Assembly: GCF_011398155.1 (NCBI RefSeq)
Contig: NZ_AP021888.1
Coordinates: forward strand, 1,347,501-1,411,500
Reading direction: 5' to 3'
Source: Thiosulfativibrio zosterae
GTDB taxonomy: Bacteria > Pseudomonadota > Gammaproteobacteria > Thiomicrospirales > Thiomicrospiraceae
DNA: 64,000 bases
Position numbers and translations under genes: made by a program. Below, in pieces: positions 4,343 through 61,559 of the stretch (the stretch's first letter is position 1; each line of letters begins with the position of its first letter). The notes under the pieces were generated by a model. The model worked only from the letters and a program-made list of their open reading frames with translations. It was not told the origin of the DNA and did not search any database.

Positions 4343-5950
4343 CTATTTTTGAATAGCAGCAATTTGTTTTTTGGGTTTTAACACTGTATTTTTGGCCTTG
4401 CTGAGTTGTTTAGGGTAATCCAAGTTAAAATGTAACCCTCGGCTTTCTTTGCGTTTTAAGGCGCTCCTAACCATCAGCTCAGCGACTTGAACCAAATTGC
4501 GCAGTTCAAGCAGGTCGGTGTTTAGCGTATGAGAAAAATAGTAGTCATTAATTTCATCTTGCATAATTTCAATACGTTGTAGCGCACGTTTTAAGCGTTT
4601 ATCACGGCGCACTATGCCCACATAATCCCACATCACTCGGCGCACTTCGTCCCAGTCATGGCTGATGGTGACTTTTTCTTTGGGGTCGGTGACAAAACTG
4701 CTGTCCCAATCTTTAATGCAAATCACTGGGCGTTCTTGAAAGTTTGCCAAAATGTGTTGATATGCTGTTTCGGCAAAAACCAAACCTTCTAACAAAGAAT
4801 TACTGGCTAAGCGATTCGCGCCATGCAGTCCGGTATGGGCGGTTTCACCTATTGCATAAAGATTTTGAATATCCGTTGCGCCATTTAAATCGGTTTGAAT
4901 ACCGCCACAAGTGTAGTGCGCGGCGGGAACTACTGGAATCGGTTCTTTGGTGATATCAATCCCGACTTTTAAGCATCGAGCATAGATGGTGGGGAAATGT
5001 TCAATAATGAAGTGTTCTGATTTATGGGTAATGTCTAAATAAACACAGTCAATCCCGTGGCGTTTAATTTCTTCATCAATGGCACGGGCCACAATATCTC
5101 TAGGCGCTAAGTCTTTGCGAGGGTCATGGTCCTCCATAAAAGCATACCCATTGGGCAATCGTAAAATACCCCCTTCGCCACGCACCGCTTCAGAAATTAA
5201 AAACGAACGGTCTTTTGGGTGAAACAGGCAAGTAGGGTGAAATTGGTTAAACTCCATGTTTGTCACAGAGCAACCCGCACGCCAAGCCATGGCAATACCA
5301 TCACCTGTTGAAGTATCCGGATTGCTGGTGTAAAGATAGGCTTTACTCGCACCGCCCGTTGCCAGAATCGTGACATTTGCTGTAATGCTGCTGATGACTC
5401 GGCTTTTTTTATTAAGCGCATAAGACCCAATACAACTGGATTTATCTTGTGACAAAATTAAATCAATGGTCATGTGATTGGGCATAAGTCGAATATTGGG
5501 ATGTTTGGTCACCGCAGAAATCAGCGTGTCTATCACGGATTTGCCAGTATGGTCAGCAGCATGAATAACGCGTCTATGGCTGTGGCCACCTTCTTGGGTT
5601 AGGTGATATTGGTTGCCGATCTGATCTTTGCTAAAAGGCACACCCAGTTCAATCAGTTCATGAATTACGCCAGAGGCTTTTTCGGCGACTAATCGAATGG
5701 CCGCAACATCCCCAAGCCCCGCGCCGGCACTCAGGGTATCTTGAATGTGAGAATCAATGCTGTCAAATGGATCTAAAACGGCGGCGATGCCACCTTGTGC
5801 ATATTGAGAGCTGCCTTCTGCAATATCTGATTTTGCCAGCAGGGTAACCTTGAAGTGTTTAGCCAGCTTTAGAGCAACAGACAAGCCTGCGATGCCGCTG
5901 CCAATGACTAAAATATCAGTATTTAGGTGAGTGTTATTGTCGGGTATCAA
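4343..5950 (-). CDS. nadB: L-aspartate oxidase (NAD biosynthesis)
   Basis: FAD enzyme oxidising L-aspartate to iminoaspartate, the first step of de novo NAD synthesis. 535 residues, normal length. N-terminal dinucleotide-binding motif VIGSGIAGLSVAL; further family signatures QYAQGGIAA, EFNQFHPTC and CGGIQTDLNGAT. The only sensible start is TTG (TTG ATA CCC), with AGGA upstream at fair spacing. Divergent from rseC. In enterics the same position beside nadB is occupied by rpoE-rseA-rseB-rseC; here the first three are missing. nadE and nadC occur elsewhere in the window, nadA does not. Confidence 0.96.
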   Translation of the reverse strand: MIPDNNTHLNTDILVIGSGIAGLSVALKLAKHFKVTLLAKSDIAEGSSQYAQGGIAAVLDPFDSIDSHIQDTLSAGAGLGDVAAIRLVAEKASGVIHELIELGVPFSKDQIGNQYHLTQEGGHSHRRVIHAADHTGKSVIDTLISAVTKHPNIRLMPNHMTIDLILSQDKSSCIGSYALNKKSRVISSITANVTILATGGASKAYLYTSNPDTSTGDGIAMAWRAGCSVTNMEFNQFHPTCLFHPKDRSFLISEAVRGEGGILRLPNGYAFMEDHDPRKDLAPRDIVARAIDEEIKRHGIDCVYLDITHKSEHFIIEHFPTIYARCLKVGIDITKEPIPVVPAAHYTCGGIQTDLNGATDIQNLYAIGETAHTGLHGANRLASNSLLEGLVFAETAYQHILANFQERPVICIKDWDSSFVTDPKEKVTISHDWDEVRRVMWDYVGIVRRDKRLKRALQRIEIMQDEINDYYFSHTLNTDLLELRNLVQVAELMVRSALKRKESRGLHFNLDYPKQLSKAKNTVLKPKKQIAAIQK

Positions 5951-54473: not shown

Positions 54474-54568
54474 GAAAATGACTCAGGTTATTTACCTGTC
54501 ATTTTAATTCAATTAAGTAAAACTTGGGATAAAAATAGAAATTTGACTTAGATATGATATCTAGAAAA

Positions 54569-54625
54569 TGGTGCCCGGGGCCGGACTCGAACCGGCACGG
54601 AGTTTCCTCCGAGGGATTTTAAGTC
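54569..54625 (-). tRNA. 3' fragment of tRNA-Leu(UAA), integration scar (att site)
   Basis: On the minus strand the sequence reads from the anticodon stem-loop (GACTTAAAATCCCT, anticodon TAA) through the long variable arm (CGGAGGAAACTCCG), the T-arm (GCCGGTTCGAGTCCGGC) and acceptor 3' strand to an encoded CCA at 54569-54571. The 5' half (acceptor 5' strand, D-arm) is absent to the right, where unrelated sequence begins. This is the footprint left when an element integrates into a tRNA 3' end; the intact gene should lie at the far right end of the element, beyond this window. Confidence 0.88.
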
Positions 54626-55721: not shown

Positions 55722-57266
55722 ATGAAGCTAAAAGTACAATTTACAAATTTTTGGGTAGCACTACTTTTATTCACAGCAGCAATTTTCGTGATTTTTTTTG
55801 TGGTGCTTCATACTTGGGAGTCGATTGCAGGTTTTCTGGGATTATTAGATATCAACTTCGTTGAGAGCAAAGAAAATATTAAAGGTAATATTGTTGTCGA
55901 CCCCGGTAAGTTCTTAGACTCAATCAGTAACTCATTGGGGTTAATTATCGGAGCTCCAGTTGCTCTGGCAGGCTCTGCTGTAGCGATTATTCTTGCACAA
56001 AGAGCATTGGCTGTATCCGAACGCCAAGAGTACAGTGATAACATAAATTTAATTGATGAAAAAGTAAGCGAATTAAAAGAATTGATTTGGAGTTTGTCAA
56101 AAGCATACAGAGAGTTTTCTAACAATGCTCAAAAGCTTACGATAAGCTACCATAACTATTATTTACTATTTAAAGATGATGAGCCTGAAAGAAAAAATTT
56201 TTTAGATTTATCTAAGAAGGTTGAAAATTCGCAGAAAGAATTTATAGATTGTTTTTTAAAAGCTGTGAAAAACCCAACTATCAATGAGTACATTAAGGAT
56301 ACAAAATATAGCTTATTTATCAATCAATTTATTGAGACTGTTTATAAAAACAATAGTTGTGAACGTTCTACATGGGGCGAACAAGAACTTTACCAAATTC
56401 CTGATTTAGCAGAGCTTGCTTTAAAGTTAGAGTTTGCATTTTGCGCAGATGATTATGAAAAAATGCTTGACGATTATTTTTCAGAGGTAAAAACAGCCAT
56501 GCTTATTGGCCAAGGGAGTTTGGAGGGTTGGGATAAGGTTTATTTTGGATATTATACTTCAGGTTTTCATTTTTTTAAAGACAAGTCATCTTATGATTTT
56601 AATGAGCGCATTAAAGCCTCTATAATAAATTATTCTCCTGAAAAGTTTTTTATGGAAGGTGCTTTATTTAATAAGCAAGAATATTTTCTTTCAAGGTTCC
56701 GAGACGAACCTCTATTGAGCCTTGATGGCTCAGTCTACTACCCATATTCTGAATTTGTAAAGCTTGATTTTTATGACCCAGACGAATCATATGTATGGGA
56801 TGAAATGGAAGGAGTTGTTTCAGATTTAAATTTAGGTTCTGCTTTTATTCTGGAGTTGGTAAACTTTTTAAAAATTGATAATGAAAAGTTAAAAGAACTT
56901 TTTATAAAAGGTAATCATCTTTTTTTTACACAGGAAAATAAATTGCTTAGAGAATTGGTTGATCGAGAATTCTCTACTATTCAGTTGACTTCTCTTCTAC
57001 CCAAAAGAGTTTTTGATTATTTAGATTTTATAAAACATTATCAAATGTTTAACTTTGCAGATAGTAAGTTTGTTGGTTTCTATGAGATATTTGATTACAT
57101 AGAGCTTATAAAAAAAGAACAAGATGTGTGGCCAGATGATCTTGAAACTATTACTAGTGAACAAGTTAAATTATTAGAATTGATTTTTGTAAGAAAGAAG
57201 AGAAATATTCCTAATGAGTCCGGACCTACTGATTTCGTTCAAGAAGATGATTTTCCTTTTTTTTAG
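55722..57266 (+). CDS. Two-TM protein with large cytoplasmic domain, unknown
   Basis: 514 residues, noticeably AT-rich coding. TM1 about 12-32 (VALLLFTAAIFVIFFVVL), a 40-residue loop, TM2 about 70-94 (GLIIGAPVALAGSAVAIILA), then a likely coiled-coil (EYSDNINLIDEKVSELKELI and following) and a long soluble helical domain rich in aromatic and acidic residues. No catalytic motif recognised. Membrane-anchored proteins of this architecture occur beside defence genes, and the position supports but does not prove such a role. Confidence 0.75.
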   Translation: MKLKVQFTNFWVALLLFTAAIFVIFFVVLHTWESIAGFLGLLDINFVESKENIKGNIVVDPGKFLDSISNSLGLIIGAPVALAGSAVAIILAQRALAVSERQEYSDNINLIDEKVSELKELIWSLSKAYREFSNNAQKLTISYHNYYLLFKDDEPERKNFLDLSKKVENSQKEFIDCFLKAVKNPTINEYIKDTKYSLFINQFIETVYKNNSCERSTWGEQELYQIPDLAELALKLEFAFCADDYEKMLDDYFSEVKTAMLIGQGSLEGWDKVYFGYYTSGFHFFKDKSSYDFNERIKASIINYSPEKFFMEGALFNKQEYFLSRFRDEPLLSLDGSVYYPYSEFVKLDFYDPDESYVWDEMEGVVSDLNLGSAFILELVNFLKIDNEKLKELFIKGNHLFFTQENKLLRELVDREFSTIQLTSLLPKRVFDYLDFIKHYQMFNFADSKFVGFYEIFDYIELIKKEQDVWPDDLETITSEQVKLLELIFVRKKRNIPNESGPTDFVQEDDFPFF

Positions 57267-57488: not shown

Positions 57489-57893
57489 ATGTCTAAGAAT
57501 TTAAATATCAAACAAGTAACCGCAGCCATTGCGATACAAAATGGCAAGGTGTTAATAACTCGCCGGGCAACAAATGAAAAGTTAGCCGGCTTATGGGAAT
57601 TTCCAGGCGGCAAGCTTGAAGCAAACGAAACACTCTTTGAATGCATTGAGCGTGAAATCAAAGAAGAGTTAGGTGTTCTGTGCTTGGCCAAAGAAATCTT
57701 CACCGAGGCCATTTACGAATATGAATTTGGAGCTATTAAACTGATAGCCATATTTATTGAATTTGAATCGACAGAATTTAAGCTTACTGTTCACGACCAA
57801 GCTGAATGGTGTTTTATAAGCGAGCTAGGGCAATATGAACTTGCGCCTGCAGATATCCCAATAGCAAAGGAACTCATTAAATGTCATCAATAG
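57489..57893 (+). CDS. Nudix hydrolase, MutT-like nucleotide pyrophosphohydrolase
   Basis: 134 residues, close to E. coli MutT in length. The Nudix box is complete at 41-63: Gly41, Glu47, Arg55-Glu56, Glu59-Glu60, Gly62. N-terminal TAAIAIQNGKVLITRR and LAGLWEFPGGKLEANE are typical of 8-oxo-dGTP and related (d)NTP diphosphatases. Its last 13 bp overlap the start of an SRA-like/HNH nuclease gene, implying coupled translation. This is probably an island-specific copy, with a role tied to the nuclease (inference). Confidence 0.9.
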   Translation: MSKNLNIKQVTAAIAIQNGKVLITRRATNEKLAGLWEFPGGKLEANETLFECIEREIKEELGVLCLAKEIFTEAIYEYEFGAIKLIAIFIEFESTEFKLTVHDQAEWCFISELGQYELAPADIPIAKELIKCHQ

Positions 57894-58714
57894 GCCTCTC
57901 AGAACTCAAGATCGGTAATATCCTTAATAATGGTGAGCTTTGTGAAGTTTTCAAATGCAGTCCCCAGGGAGGGATGAGACGTGCGCTTAAAACTAATTCA
58001 CTCGTACTGATATCAAACCATGTTGATGCCATTTATGACGATCGTTGGGCAGAAGATGTATTGCACTATACCGGCATGGGGCAAATCGGCGATCAAAAGC
58101 TAGAGGGCAATCAAAACAAAACGCTTTATGAGTCAGAGAAAAACGGGGTTGATATTCACTTATTCGAAGTTTTTGAAGACAAACAGTACACTTACACAGG
58201 ATTAATGGCCCTAGCAGATAAGCCATATCAAGAGATTCAGCCTGATATAGAAGGCAACCCTCGACTTGTATATGTTTTTCCTATTAAAAGGGCATTTGAC
58301 TCCTCATATAAGCCTGCAAAAGAGCAATTCGAAAAGCCTTTTATTAAAAAACAAAAACAGGCGAGAAAGCTCTCAGATAAAGAATTATTAGCCAAAGCAA
58401 AACAAAACCCACATCAAGAACCAAGTTCTAGAGAAGTATCATCTAAGCAGTATATTCGAAGTCCTTGGGTAGTAGAACATGCGCTTAGGCAAGCGAACGG
58501 GGTTTGTCAACTATGCGATTCTCCGGCGCCCTTTAAGACGGTTGATGATAAACCTTTTCTTGAGGTCCACCACATCGTTTGGTTGGCAAACGGTGGTGCA
58601 GACAGCATCGATAATGCAGTTGCCCTATGCCCCAATTGTCATAGAAAAATGCACGCATTGAATATTCCAAGTGACGTACAAAAGCTCAAACTGAAAGTTA
58701 AAGGTATTACATGA
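57881..58714 (+). CDS. Probable modification-dependent endonuclease, SRA-like plus HNH
   Basis: 277 residues. The N-terminal part (about 20-137) has the look of an SRA-type modified-base-binding fold: LVLISNHVDAIYDDRW, YTGMGQIGDQKLEGNQNKTL, then HLFEVFEDKQYTYTGLM and RLVYVFPI. A charged linker follows. The C-terminal HNH domain (about 195-260) is complete: zinc cysteines C209, C212, C250 and C253, with VHHI (His230/231), Asn245 and His254. By analogy to SRA-HNH enzymes it should cut DNA carrying modified cytosine. Start overlaps the Nudix gene; the SNase gene starts 1 bp after its stop. Confidence 0.82.
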   Translation: MSSIGLSELKIGNILNNGELCEVFKCSPQGGMRRALKTNSLVLISNHVDAIYDDRWAEDVLHYTGMGQIGDQKLEGNQNKTLYESEKNGVDIHLFEVFEDKQYTYTGLMALADKPYQEIQPDIEGNPRLVYVFPIKRAFDSSYKPAKEQFEKPFIKKQKQARKLSDKELLAKAKQNPHQEPSSREVSSKQYIRSPWVVEHALRQANGVCQLCDSPAPFKTVDDKPFLEVHHIVWLANGGADSIDNAVALCPNCHRKMHALNIPSDVQKLKLKVKGIT

Positions 58715-58715
58715 A

Positions 58716-59423
58716 ATGAATGTTTTCTCACCAATTATCATGATTACTTTAGCCTTATTTTGCGGCGTTTCATTAGTTCAAGCGGAAACCCTCACCGGCA
58801 AAGTTATTAGTGTCACTGACGGCGATACTATAAAGCTTTTGGTCAAAGAAGGTGACCATCAAACCCAAGTCAAAATAAGACTAGCCGAAATAGATGCGCC
58901 TGAAAAGAATCAGCCTTGGGGGCAGAAATCAAAACAGGCATTGTCTGACTTAATATTTGGAAAAATTATTACCGCTGAAGTACAAACAACAGATCGTTAT
59001 GGGAGAAGGGTTGCTGACTTGTTTAAAGGGGAGTCTTGGATTAATGGAACTATGGTTCGTTCAGGACATGCATGGGTGTACACAAAGTACAGCAAGGATC
59101 CTCAAATAAGGGGGCTTGAGCAACAAGCTAAAGCAGAACGCTTAGGTTTATGGGGGCTACCTGAGCCAGAAAGAATACCGCCTTGGGAATGGCGACACAA
59201 TAAGAAGAGTTCTTCGGCGACAGGAACTACTAGCTCATCTAGTCCAATCAAAAATTACCCAACCCAATCTAGTGTTCAAAGCCAAAGCAGAAAATGTGAG
59301 GGGAAAAGAACATGTGGGCAAATGACGTCCTGTTCTGAAGCATATTTTTATTTGAATCAGTGTGGAGTGGGTTCACTTGATAGAGACAGGGATGGTATTC
59401 CTTGCGAGAAGATTTGTAAATAA
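58716..59423 (+). CDS. Secreted thermonuclease-like protein with Excalibur domain
   Basis: 235 residues. Signal peptide about 1-23 (cleaved after VQA). SNase domain about 24-150 with calcium/catalytic residues in TDGDTIKLL (Asp35, Asp37), Arg55 and Glu63 in IRLAEIDAPE, and Arg97 in DRYGRR. A Ser/Thr-rich linker, then a C-terminal Excalibur calcium-binding motif (CSEAYFYLNQCG ... LDRDRDGIPCE). It should digest nucleic acid outside the cytoplasm. Begins 1 bp after the HNH gene, so it is probably the third gene of that transcript. Confidence 0.93.
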   Translation: MNVFSPIIMITLALFCGVSLVQAETLTGKVISVTDGDTIKLLVKEGDHQTQVKIRLAEIDAPEKNQPWGQKSKQALSDLIFGKIITAEVQTTDRYGRRVADLFKGESWINGTMVRSGHAWVYTKYSKDPQIRGLEQQAKAERLGLWGLPEPERIPPWEWRHNKKSSSATGTTSSSSPIKNYPTQSSVQSQSRKCEGKRTCGQMTSCSEAYFYLNQCGVGSLDRDRDGIPCEKICK

Positions 59424-59517
59424 AGACTAATTTTTATATTGTCACGACATACTATCAGAATAATAATTATAGATCTTGAAACTTTTTTAAGTGTTTTGTG
59501 AAAAAACTGGGATACTC

Positions 59518-59874
59518 ATGAATAAAAATTTAGATTTATCGAAAATTACATCTGAAATTAACAGCTTCAGAGACGATAGGGATTGGAAGAAATTTCACAC
59601 AATTAAAAACCTATCAATGGCACTTTCCGTTGAGGCCTCTGAATTAATGGAGATATTTCAATGGGCCTCCTACGATGACTTAAGTAATTTAGTCGCTGAA
59701 AAGGAATTGGCTATTTCTGAAGAAATCGCAGATATATTCATTTATTTGTTACTCATTGCGAATGAGGCAAATATAGATATCGAGACAGCAGTTTTTAACA
59801 AAATGGCAAAGAACGCCAAGAAATACCCTATAGATAAGTCTAAAAGTTGCAGTAAAAAGTACTCAGAGCTTTAG
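59518..59874 (+). CDS. MazG-type nucleotide pyrophosphohydrolase
   Basis: 118 residues from ATG 59518; an in-frame start 27 nt earlier is possible. Metal-binding helices are intact: SVEASELME (Glu39, Glu42) and EEIADIF (Glu69, Asp72), with the end KNAKKYP typical of small MazG/dCTPase-like enzymes that hydrolyse (d)NTPs to monophosphates. It is followed after 2 bp by the GIY-YIG/DUF2075 gene. AT-rich, unlike the core genes. Confidence 0.9.
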   Translation: MNKNLDLSKITSEINSFRDDRDWKKFHTIKNLSMALSVEASELMEIFQWASYDDLSNLVAEKELAISEEIADIFIYLLLIANEANIDIETAVFNKMAKNAKKYPIDKSKSCSKKYSEL

Positions 59875-59876
59875 TC

Positions 59877-61559
59877 ATGTCATTTGAATTTATAGACAGA
59901 ACCTTCATTTTTAGTTCTTTAACGTCCCAACAAATAACCTACGAATATCCTACTTACGTAAACTTTCCAGTTGTCTACATAATTTATTCTGAAAGTGAAG
60001 GGTTGGCATATGTTGGAGAATCAACAAATATTCCATTAAGGATCAAACAGCACTTAGGGAATGAGCAGAAAAAGGGTTTGAAAAATATTAAAGTGATTTT
60101 CAGCCATTTTTTTAATAAGTCAGCCGTGTGGGATATTGAATCAAATTTAATAAAGTACATGGGAGCTGATGGTACTTATAAACTTCTGAATGGTAATGAT
60201 GGAATTTCTGGTCACCATTATTATCAAAGGCAACAGTATCACGAAGTCTTTAAAAATATCTGGAGTGGGTTGAAGCTAAATAATTTAGTCAAGACAGATT
60301 TACTAGATATCGAGAACTCTGATTTGTTCAAGTTTTCTCCATATAAAAAGCTTTCAGACGATCAATACCTTTCTCTAAAGGCATTTTTAGAGTTCACCGT
60401 TATGGGAAAGACTCAAACCGCCTTTTTTGAAGGTAGTGCTGGCACAGGTAAAACTATCCTAGCAATCTATTTAATCAAATTACTTTTGAATAATGTAAAA
60501 AAGGATGATTTAAAAGAGTCTTCTGAAAATAATTCATTAATAGAACTTGCAAATAAAGCAAAGCTTTCTCTTTTTATAGACCCAGAAAACCCAAAAATTG
60601 CTCTAGTTGTGCCCGTCAAGTCATTAAGAAAAACATTAAAAGGGGTATTTAAGAGCATATATGGATTATCACCCAAAATGGTTATTGGCCCTAGCGAAGT
60701 AACTAAGTTAAAGGACAAATATGACTTATTAATAGTTGATGAATCTCATCGACTTAAAAGAAGAAAAAATCTTGTAGGTTACGGTGCATTTGATACTACG
60801 AATATAGAGTTTGGATTAGATAAGTTAGACGGGACTGAATTAGATTGGGTTGTTTTATCGTCAAGGAGTATTGTTTTTTTCTATGATGATAAACAATCAA
60901 TTAAACCATCAGATGTTCCAAAAGTTAAATTTGATCAGATTAAAGATCAATCAACTGTATTCAAACTCAAGTCTCAAATGAGAGTTCAAGGGGGTTCTGA
61001 CTATATTGAGTTTGTTGATAAATTATTAAGCAATTCAGAGTCCTTGATTCCGTGGATTTCGGACGACTACGAAGTAAAATTATTTGAAAATATTCATGAA
61101 TTTGTAGAGGCGATAAAGCAAAAAGAAGCTATATTTGGCCTGTGTCGTACTATTTCAGGATACTCATGGGAATGGCTTTCAAAAAAAGATAAAACTCAAC
61201 CAGATATCACCATTGATGGAATAGAATTTTTTTGGAATAGAACAGACGAAGACTGGATAAACTCTACTAAAGATGTTTGCGAGATGGGGTGTATTCATAC
61301 AACGCAAGGCTATGACCTAAACTATGCGGGCATTATTTTTGGGAGTGATATTACGTACAATGAGTATACCCAAAAAATAGAAATCATACCTTCAAACTAC
61401 TTCGACAAAAAAGGTAAAGCAGGTGCTAGTGAAATCGAGCTACATGATTACATACTAAATATTTACAAAACAATTATGTACAGAGGTATTAAGGGAACAT
61501 ACGTATTTTGCTTTGATAAGAAATTAGAGAGTTATTTTAAGAAATATATTCCAGTTTAA
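59877..61559 (+). CDS. GIY-YIG nuclease fused to DUF2075 P-loop helicase-like domain
   Basis: 560 residues. The GIY-YIG domain (about 30-110) retains its likely active residues: VVYIIY and AYVGES tyrosines, Arg in PLRIKQHL, Glu88 in WDIESNLI and Asn in KLLNGND. A SF1-like ATPase of the DUF2075 group follows (about 160-560): Walker A GSAGTGKT (186-193), Walker B LLIVDESH (284-291), FFYDDKQS, an arginine motif LKSQMRVQGG and HTTQGYDLNYAGIIFG. All motifs appear intact, so an active nucleic-acid translocase-nuclease is likely. Coupled to the MazG gene. Confidence 0.88.
   Translation: MSFEFIDRTFIFSSLTSQQITYEYPTYVNFPVVYIIYSESEGLAYVGESTNIPLRIKQHLGNEQKKGLKNIKVIFSHFFNKSAVWDIESNLIKYMGADGTYKLLNGNDGISGHHYYQRQQYHEVFKNIWSGLKLNNLVKTDLLDIENSDLFKFSPYKKLSDDQYLSLKAFLEFTVMGKTQTAFFEGSAGTGKTILAIYLIKLLLNNVKKDDLKESSENNSLIELANKAKLSLFIDPENPKIALVVPVKSLRKTLKGVFKSIYGLSPKMVIGPSEVTKLKDKYDLLIVDESHRLKRRKNLVGYGAFDTTNIEFGLDKLDGTELDWVVLSSRSIVFFYDDKQSIKPSDVPKVKFDQIKDQSTVFKLKSQMRVQGGSDYIEFVDKLLSNSESLIPWISDDYEVKLFENIHEFVEAIKQKEAIFGLCRTISGYSWEWLSKKDKTQPDITIDGIEFFWNRTDEDWINSTKDVCEMGCIHTTQGYDLNYAGIIFGSDITYNEYTQKIEIIPSNYFDKKGKAGASEIELHDYILNIYKTIMYRGIKGTYVFCFDKKLESYFKKYIPV

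What the first reader, a model, noticed from the sequence alone, without database searches (positions are those of the whole stretch)
57489..61559. Two consecutive pyrophosphohydrolase-plus-nuclease pairs: candidate defence module
A Nudix hydrolase overlaps an SRA-like/HNH nuclease, and a MazG enzyme is 2 bp from a GIY-YIG/DUF2075 helicase-nuclease. An exported SNase lies between. In each pair a nucleotide-hydrolysing enzyme is translated just before a nucleic-acid-cutting enzyme. A logic of destroying modified or signal nucleotides and then DNA, or of protecting the host pool from the nuclease partner, is conceivable. That two different pairs share this design in one island is unusual.
Basis: inference. 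Interest (0 to 1): 0.75.

Follow-up and report, generated by a model that had tools for sequence, protein, structure and literature searches.

The report
Nucleotide-hydrolase plus modified-DNA-nuclease double module
A small mobile DNA island carries two gene pairs, each joining an enzyme related to ones that destroy methylated DNA building blocks to an enzyme predicted to cut DNA; similar pairs recur in unrelated bacteria, which suggests a shared and largely undescribed way of resisting viruses with modified DNA.

Summary
The HNH protein is an SRA-HNH (type IV-like) enzyme by sequence and predicted fold.

Neither pair is a chance neighbour. MazG adjoins the GIY-YIG/SLFN-g3 helicase or a relative in 19 of 25 loci (window included) from several phyla. 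A Nudix gene adjoins, or is fused to, 11 of 38 independent SRA-HNH clusters, and the same Nudix family sits beside SauUSI homologues. The double design recurs: Priestia has Nudix/MrcB_N-HNH/MazG/SLFN helicase, and L. plantarum has Nudix/SauUSI-like/MazG/GIY-YIG helicase.

The hydrolases are related to the two enzymes the literature names as specific 5-methyl-dCTP hydrolases (NudG/Orf135 and RS21-C6/DCTPP1). Best reading: modification-dependent restriction with a dedicated pool-cleaning partner. Whether the hydrolase protects the host or starves the phage is undecided; no substrate or phenotype was tested.

The module is cargo of a 14.2-kb tRNA-Leu island. New variant of a known kind: MutT beside SauUSI, and MazG as a defence candidate, are already noted; I found no description of the composite.

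The parts
54565..54625 (.). 61-bp left repeat of the island, a perfect copy of the 3' part of a tRNA-Leu gene about 14.2 kb away
   Evidence: blastn 61/61 identical to L071 4785-4845, which holds tRNA-Leu 4789-4875 next to an integrase at L071 3579-4652
57489..57893 (+). Nudix hydrolase, NudG/MutT-like; predicted (modified) dNTP pyrophosphohydrolase
   Evidence: PF00293 9.5e-17; PADLOC PDC-S07 6.7e-43; PDB 2rrk (E. coli NudG) 5e-18; Nudix box intact and box residues invariant in 11 relatives
57881..58714 (+). SRA-HNH nuclease, predicted modification-dependent (type IV-like) restriction enzyme
   Evidence: PADLOC mREase_IV 1.8e-23; EcoKMcrA 8.5e-23; predicted fold SRA plus HNH, Z 13.9 each
58716..59423 (+). 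SNase-like nuclease with Excalibur domain and a likely signal peptide (by eye); optional neighbour
   Evidence: PF00565 1.3e-22, PF05901 4.2e-8; one parallel, an SNase/Excalibur gene 26 bp before an HNH-Nudix fusion in L094
59518..59874 (+). MazG-like pyrophosphohydrolase of the RS21-C6/DCTPP1 type (alternative GTG start 59491)
   Evidence: PF12643 6.5e-19; RS21-C6/DCTPP1 2.2e-18; catalytic E39, E42, E69, D72 invariant in 11 relatives
59877..61559 (+). GIY-YIG nuclease fused to a Schlafen group 3 (former DUF2075) helicase
   Evidence: PF09848 4.7e-55; PF01541 2e-8; GIY-YIG and Walker residues conserved; Foldseek best match human SLFN11 helicase

Best explanation
This is a two-layer anti-phage cassette carried by an integrative island. 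In each layer a DNA-cutting enzyme works with its own dNTP pyrophosphohydrolase. Layer 1: the SRA domain recognises modified cytosine (5mC or 5hmC type) in incoming DNA and the HNH domain cuts it; the Nudix enzyme hydrolyses the matching modified dCTP to the monophosphate. Layer 2: a GIY-YIG nuclease on a SLFN-type helicase motor cuts foreign DNA, with a DCTPP1-type MazG hydrolysing dCTP or 5-modified dCTP. The hydrolase keeps modified dCTP, made by the phage or released from its DNA, out of the pool; this stops the mark from entering host DNA, where the nuclease would cut it, and would also starve phages that modify at the nucleotide level. Shown here: gene identities, intact motifs, SRA and HNH folds, recurrent pairing, natural fusions, no detectable C5-cytosine methyltransferase in this genome. 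Inferred: substrates, cutting, defence, and the protecting or starving role. For layer 2 no modified-base sensor domain was found, so that part is weaker.
For: SRA and HNH folds and mREase_IV match. Nudix adjacent or fused to SRA-HNH in 11 of 38 clusters and adjacent to SauUSI homologues. MazG next to the helicase in 19 of 25 loci. Double design in L090 and L062. HNH-Nudix fusions. PMC10742078 names Orf135/NudG and RS21-C6/DCTPP1 as highly specific 5-methyl-dCTP hydrolases, and the two hydrolases here match these. Separate MutT-like Nudix elsewhere in the genome, and no C5-cytosine methyltransferase found. Island cargo.
Against: No substrate, cutting or phage data. The Nudix fails the NudG equivalog cut-off and scores equally on the general MutT model. 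DCTPP1 His38, which contacts the cytosine, is Ile14 here. 27 of 38 SRA-HNH clusters have no adjacent Nudix, so the partner is optional. In one fusion (L126) the Nudix box is degraded. The GC split suggests the two pairs were acquired apart.
Confidence: 0.47

Rival explanations
1. General housecleaning: the hydrolases remove oxidised or excess dNTPs (such as 8-oxo-dGTP or dUTP) that arise during infection or DNA repair after the nuclease acts, without any link to the modified base that the nuclease reads.
For: The general MutT model scores the Nudix as high as the NudG model and the best PDB hit is annotated MutT.
Against: A separate MutT-like Nudix is encoded elsewhere. The score is nearer NudG than E. 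coli MutT. The second hydrolase is from a dCTP-type family. The Nudix partners seen are mostly modified-DNA nucleases.
Confidence: 0.18
2. Nucleotide sensor or toxin-antitoxin logic: the hydrolase binds a nucleotide signal and gates or restrains the nuclease, rather than cleaning the pool.
For: Overlapping genes with the hydrolase first, and direct fusions. One fused Nudix has a degraded catalytic box (RHVKEKLG), as expected for a binding-only domain.
Against: In the aligned free-standing Nudix and MazG proteins the catalytic residues are invariant, which a pure sensor would not need. SRA-HNH is found without the hydrolase in 27 of 38 clusters, so it need not be an antitoxin.
Confidence: 0.15
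3. Island neighbours only: two ordinary pairs, each with its own function, collected in a defence hotspot; the double arrangement has no joint meaning.
For: GC differs between the pairs. Each pair occurs without the other in most loci. Defence genes cluster in islands.
Against: The same order (Nudix, modified-DNA nuclease, MazG, SLFN helicase) recurs in Priestia and L. plantarum with different nucleases, and further loci carry both hydrolases.
Confidence: 0.2

Closest known systems
TagI, ScoMcrA and EcoKMcrA: SRA-HNH and McrA modification-dependent (type IV) restriction enzymes
   Same: SRA sensor plus McrA-type HNH by sequence and predicted fold
   Different: Here translated in overlap with a Nudix hydrolase; target modification untested
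SauUSI with a neighbouring MutT gene (noted in a legend of PMC7641849)
   Same: A type IV enzyme next to a Nudix hydrolase; homologues of SauUSI pair with the same Nudix family
   Different: The window has SRA-HNH instead of a PLD-helicase-SRA protein, and carries a second, MazG-based pair
NudG/Orf135 and RS21-C6/DCTPP1 5-methyl-dCTP hydrolases
   Same: Sequence relatives with intact catalytic motifs
   Different: Here encoded in a mobile island beside nucleases; substrate unknown; DCTPP1 His38 not kept
Schlafen group 3 / AbiO and Nhi type helicases
   Same: Helicase domain
   Different: GIY-YIG nuclease at the N-terminus and a MazG partner; no Schlafen RNase domain found by Pfam
PADLOC candidates PDC-S07 (Nudix) and PDC-S14 (GIY-YIG); MazG as a predicted defence domain in DefensePredictor (PMC13092281)
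   Same: Single components already flagged as defence candidates
   Different: No model or paper found that joins them as one module

Membership tests
SRA-HNH modification-dependent restriction enzymes | SRA-fold base-reading domain | tested here: met
   Model residues 6-146 match SUVH5 SRA, Z 13.9, rmsd 2.6 over 129 residues
SRA-HNH modification-dependent restriction enzymes | McrA-type HNH domain with metal-binding cysteines and HNH histidines | tested here: met
   C209, C212, C250, C253, H230, H231, H254, H258 invariant; EcoKMcrA match Z 13.9
SRA-HNH modification-dependent restriction enzymes | Cuts DNA with 5mC or 5hmC and spares unmodified DNA | not testable with these tools
   Needs purified protein; only indirect support, no C5-methyltransferase found in this genome
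NudG/Orf135 5-methyl-dCTP pyrophosphohydrolase | Intact Nudix box | tested here: met
   GGKLEANETLFECIEREIKEELGV in the window; box residues invariant in 11 relatives
NudG/Orf135 5-methyl-dCTP pyrophosphohydrolase | Passes the curated NudG equivalog cut-off | tested here: not met
   PRK10546 90.6 bits against a cut-off of 156; so a relative, not filed as NudG
RS21-C6/DCTPP1 dCTP pyrophosphatase | MazG catalytic residues and nucleotide pocket | tested here: inconclusive
   Seven of eight pocket residues kept (W23, E39, E42, W49, E69, D72, Y76); His38 is Ile14
RS21-C6/DCTPP1 dCTP pyrophosphatase | Prefers dCTP and 5-modified dCTP | not testable with these tools
   Needs an enzyme assay
GIY-YIG nuclease | GIY-YIG motif with catalytic Arg and Glu | tested here: met
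   Y34, Y45, G47, R55, E88 invariant in 14 relatives
Schlafen proteins | Schlafen-type helicase domain | tested here: met
   PF09848 4.7e-55; SLFN11 best structural match
Schlafen proteins | N-terminal Schlafen RNase core | tested here: not met
   Pfam gives GIY-YIG at the N-terminus and no Schlafen core; so not filed as a Schlafen RNase
Multi-gene defence systems of PADLOC | All components of one described system present | tested here: not met
   Matches are single-gene models (PDC-S07, mREase_IV, PDC-S14) or partial AbiO/Nhi helicase matches; MazG and SNase have none

The most novel reading that the evidence does not exclude
A general but undescribed principle: modification-dependent nucleases travel with a dedicated hydrolase for the same modified nucleotide, so defence acts on the mark twice, in DNA and in the dNTP pool. 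Two unrelated enzyme folds (Nudix and MazG) have been recruited for this, and some islands stack both.
Probability: 0.33. Interest if true: 0.82.

Novelty: new variant of a known kind. Interest (0 to 1): 0.62.

Why it matters
If true, it explains why type IV restriction enzymes and former-DUF2075 nuclease-helicases keep a nucleotide hydrolase beside them. It would also answer how a host with an enzyme against 5mC or 5hmC avoids cutting its own DNA when modified dCTP enters the pool, and it predicts a simple enzymatic test. It would give enzymes of the 5-methyl-dCTP hydrolase type a concrete role in phage defence.

Tried and rejected
(1) Chance neighbours: rejected for each pair. (2) SRA call too weak: Pfam 19.9 bits was under cut-off, so the fold was tested; it is SRA. 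(3) Sequence homology between the window SRA and the SauUSI-like C-terminus: inconclusive (hmmsearch 3e-4 for one member, hhalign probability 0.8%); only the structure match supports it. (4) A viral-contig scan with the helicase alignment found nothing, though MazG loci there do show SLFN helicases (L290, L297). (5) SNase as a conserved third partner: one close parallel only, so kept as optional. (6) The 514-aa ORF 55722-57266 as part of the module: no Pfam match and no plasmid relative; left out. (7) Literature: no paper held joins DUF2075 with MazG, and nothing found describes the pairing beyond the SauUSI/MutT legend; only open-licence papers are held, so absence is weak. (9) Most loci were found by similarity, so frequencies are not population estimates.

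Full report
WHAT IS THERE. Five co-directional genes occupy 57489-61559. Nudix (57489-57893) overlaps SRA-HNH (57881-58714) by 13 bp; SNase-Excalibur (58716-59423) follows by 1 bp; after a 94-bp gap MazG-like (59518-59874) ends 2 bp before a GIY-YIG/SLFN-g3 helicase (59877-61559). The family once called DUF2075 is now the Pfam family SLFN-g3_helicase. GC splits the genes into 39.5-42% (Nudix, HNH, SNase) and 32.5-34% (MazG, helicase), so the two pairs probably arrived separately.

ISLAND. A 61-bp perfect repeat at window 54565-54625 copies the 3' part of a tRNA-Leu gene about 14.2 kb away, and a phage-type integrase lies next to that tRNA. The module is therefore cargo of a tRNA-integrated element.

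IDENTITIES. The HNH protein was modelled with 24 relatives (pLDDT 90.2). Its N-terminus is an SRA domain (SUVH5 Z 13.9; SauUSI SRA region Z 10.7) and its C-terminus the EcoKMcrA HNH (Z 13.9). HNH cysteines and histidines are invariant in 13 relatives. The Nudix has an intact box, matches PADLOC PDC-S07 (6.7e-43) and is nearer E. coli NudG (68.6 bits) than E. coli MutT (47.7 bits), but it fails the NudG equivalog cut-off and scores equally on the general MutT model. The MazG protein matches RS21-C6/DCTPP1 over residues 16-118 (2.2e-18) with seven of eight pocket residues kept; His38 is Ile14 (pocket from PMC4491611). The last gene has GIY-YIG catalytic residues and a helicase fold whose best match is human SLFN11, but no Schlafen RNase domain.

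PAIR 1 IS CONSERVED. Among 38 independent clusters (80% identity) of full-length SRA-HNH from plasmids, genomes and viral contigs, 11 (window included) have an adjacent or fused Nudix: nine directly upstream, one downstream, one fused. L126 is a Nudix-SRA-HNH fusion with a degraded Nudix box; Paenibacillus polymyxa L094 and prophage contig L190 have a McrA-type HNH followed by Nudix in one protein. The same Nudix family also adjoins other modified-DNA enzymes. One is a SauUSI homologue in L. plantarum (2e-252 to 7clg), with the same arrangement in L. curvatus, L. fermentum and Hymenobacter. Others are MrcB_N-HNH in Priestia aryabhattai (213 bp away) and an HNH protein in Sphingomonas whose N-terminal domain looks EVE-like by eye.

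PAIR 2 IS CONSERVED. MazG lies next to the helicase, up- or downstream, in 19 of 25 loci (window included), across Proteobacteria, Firmicutes, Actinobacteria, Bacteroidota and a Bacteriovorax MAG. In one of these (L051) MazG is convergent, and in another (L101) the helicase frame is broken and the gap is 0.6 kb. Where MazG is missing, other nucleases can stand in its place: SRA-HNH (L053), MrcB_N-HNH (L055), PD-(D/E)XK (L046). Of 25 plasmids with MazG hits, 12 also have helicase hits, against 0.013 expected under independence (my arithmetic; large plasmids inflate this). In 398 Pseudomonadota genomes, 9 of 21 strong SLFN-g3 helicases have an adjacent MazG (partly the same loci). MazG also sits beside HNH enzymes without the helicase (L106, L292, L295, L296).

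THE DOUBLE DESIGN RECURS. L090 (Priestia aryabhattai): Nudix, MrcB_N-HNH, MazG and SLFN-g3 helicase in a row, with restriction and ABC-three-component genes around them. L062 (L. plantarum): Nudix, SauUSI-like, MazG, GIY-YIG-SLFN helicase. L096 (L. fermentum): Nudix, SauUSI-like, MazG. L190 (prophage contig): MazG and, 2.1 kb on, an HNH-Nudix fusion. The window is thus one of about five such loci seen here. A related link inside the host's own family: in G016 a 54%-identical SRA-HNH overlaps an SLFN-g3 helicase by 8 bp.

MECHANISM. [quoted passage not shown] coli (Orf135, that is NudG) and in mammals (RS21-C6/DCTPP1). The two hydrolases in this island are relatives of these two unrelated enzymes, and characterised relatives of the first nuclease read modified cytosine. 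The simplest reading is that each nuclease travels with a hydrolase for the nucleotide form of the mark it attacks. That would keep the mark out of host DNA and starve phages that modify at the nucleotide level. The genome has no detectable C5-cytosine methyltransferase and keeps a separate MutT-like Nudix elsewhere; both fit. Shown: identity, motifs, folds, linkage. Inferred: substrate, cutting, defence, direction of benefit. For layer 2 no modified-base sensor was found, so its share of the model is weaker.

KNOWN AND NEW. MutT beside SauUSI homologues was noted in a legend (PMC7641849). MazG is a predicted defence domain in DefensePredictor (PMC13092281). PDC-S07 and mREase_IV are PADLOC single-gene models. 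I found no description of the MazG/GIY-YIG-SLFN pair or of the double module in the open-licence library. Hence a new variant of a known kind.

Noticed in passing
window 54565-54625 and L071 4785-4845: 61-bp perfect direct repeat copying the 3' part of tRNA-Leu bounds a 14.2-kb integrative island with a tyrosine integrase and a DUF6387 gene.
   Followed up: partly
L070 15652-18516 (minus strand; starts at window 63151): 954-aa ORF of the island with no Pfam match; by position it could be the replication protein of a satellite-like element.
   Followed up: partly
window 55722-57266: 514-aa ORF with apparent N-terminal membrane segments, 31.6% GC, no Pfam or PADLOC match and no relative among plasmids.
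   Followed up: partly
L085 5871-8069 and L086 237-2711: Relatives of the SLFN-g3 helicase carry a C-terminal S24 (LexA-like) peptidase domain, which may link them to DNA-damage signalling.
   Followed up: no
L126 5611-6831: Natural Nudix-SRA-HNH fusion in which the Nudix box is degraded (RHVKEKLG), so the domain may bind rather than hydrolyse.
   Followed up: partly
L053 1162-4363 (Enterococcus raffinosus megaplasmid): Hachiman-like HamA/HamB genes lie divergently beside the SRA-HNH plus GIY-YIG helicase pair.
   Followed up: no
L046 3699-4850 (Psychrobacter): In the closest helicase relative (64% identity) a PD-(D/E)XK nuclease (PADLOC PDC-S26) stands where MazG is expected.
   Followed up: partly
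L106 5935-8232: Prophage contig with SRA-HNH, MazG and a second HNH protein in a row, with no Nudix.
   Followed up: no
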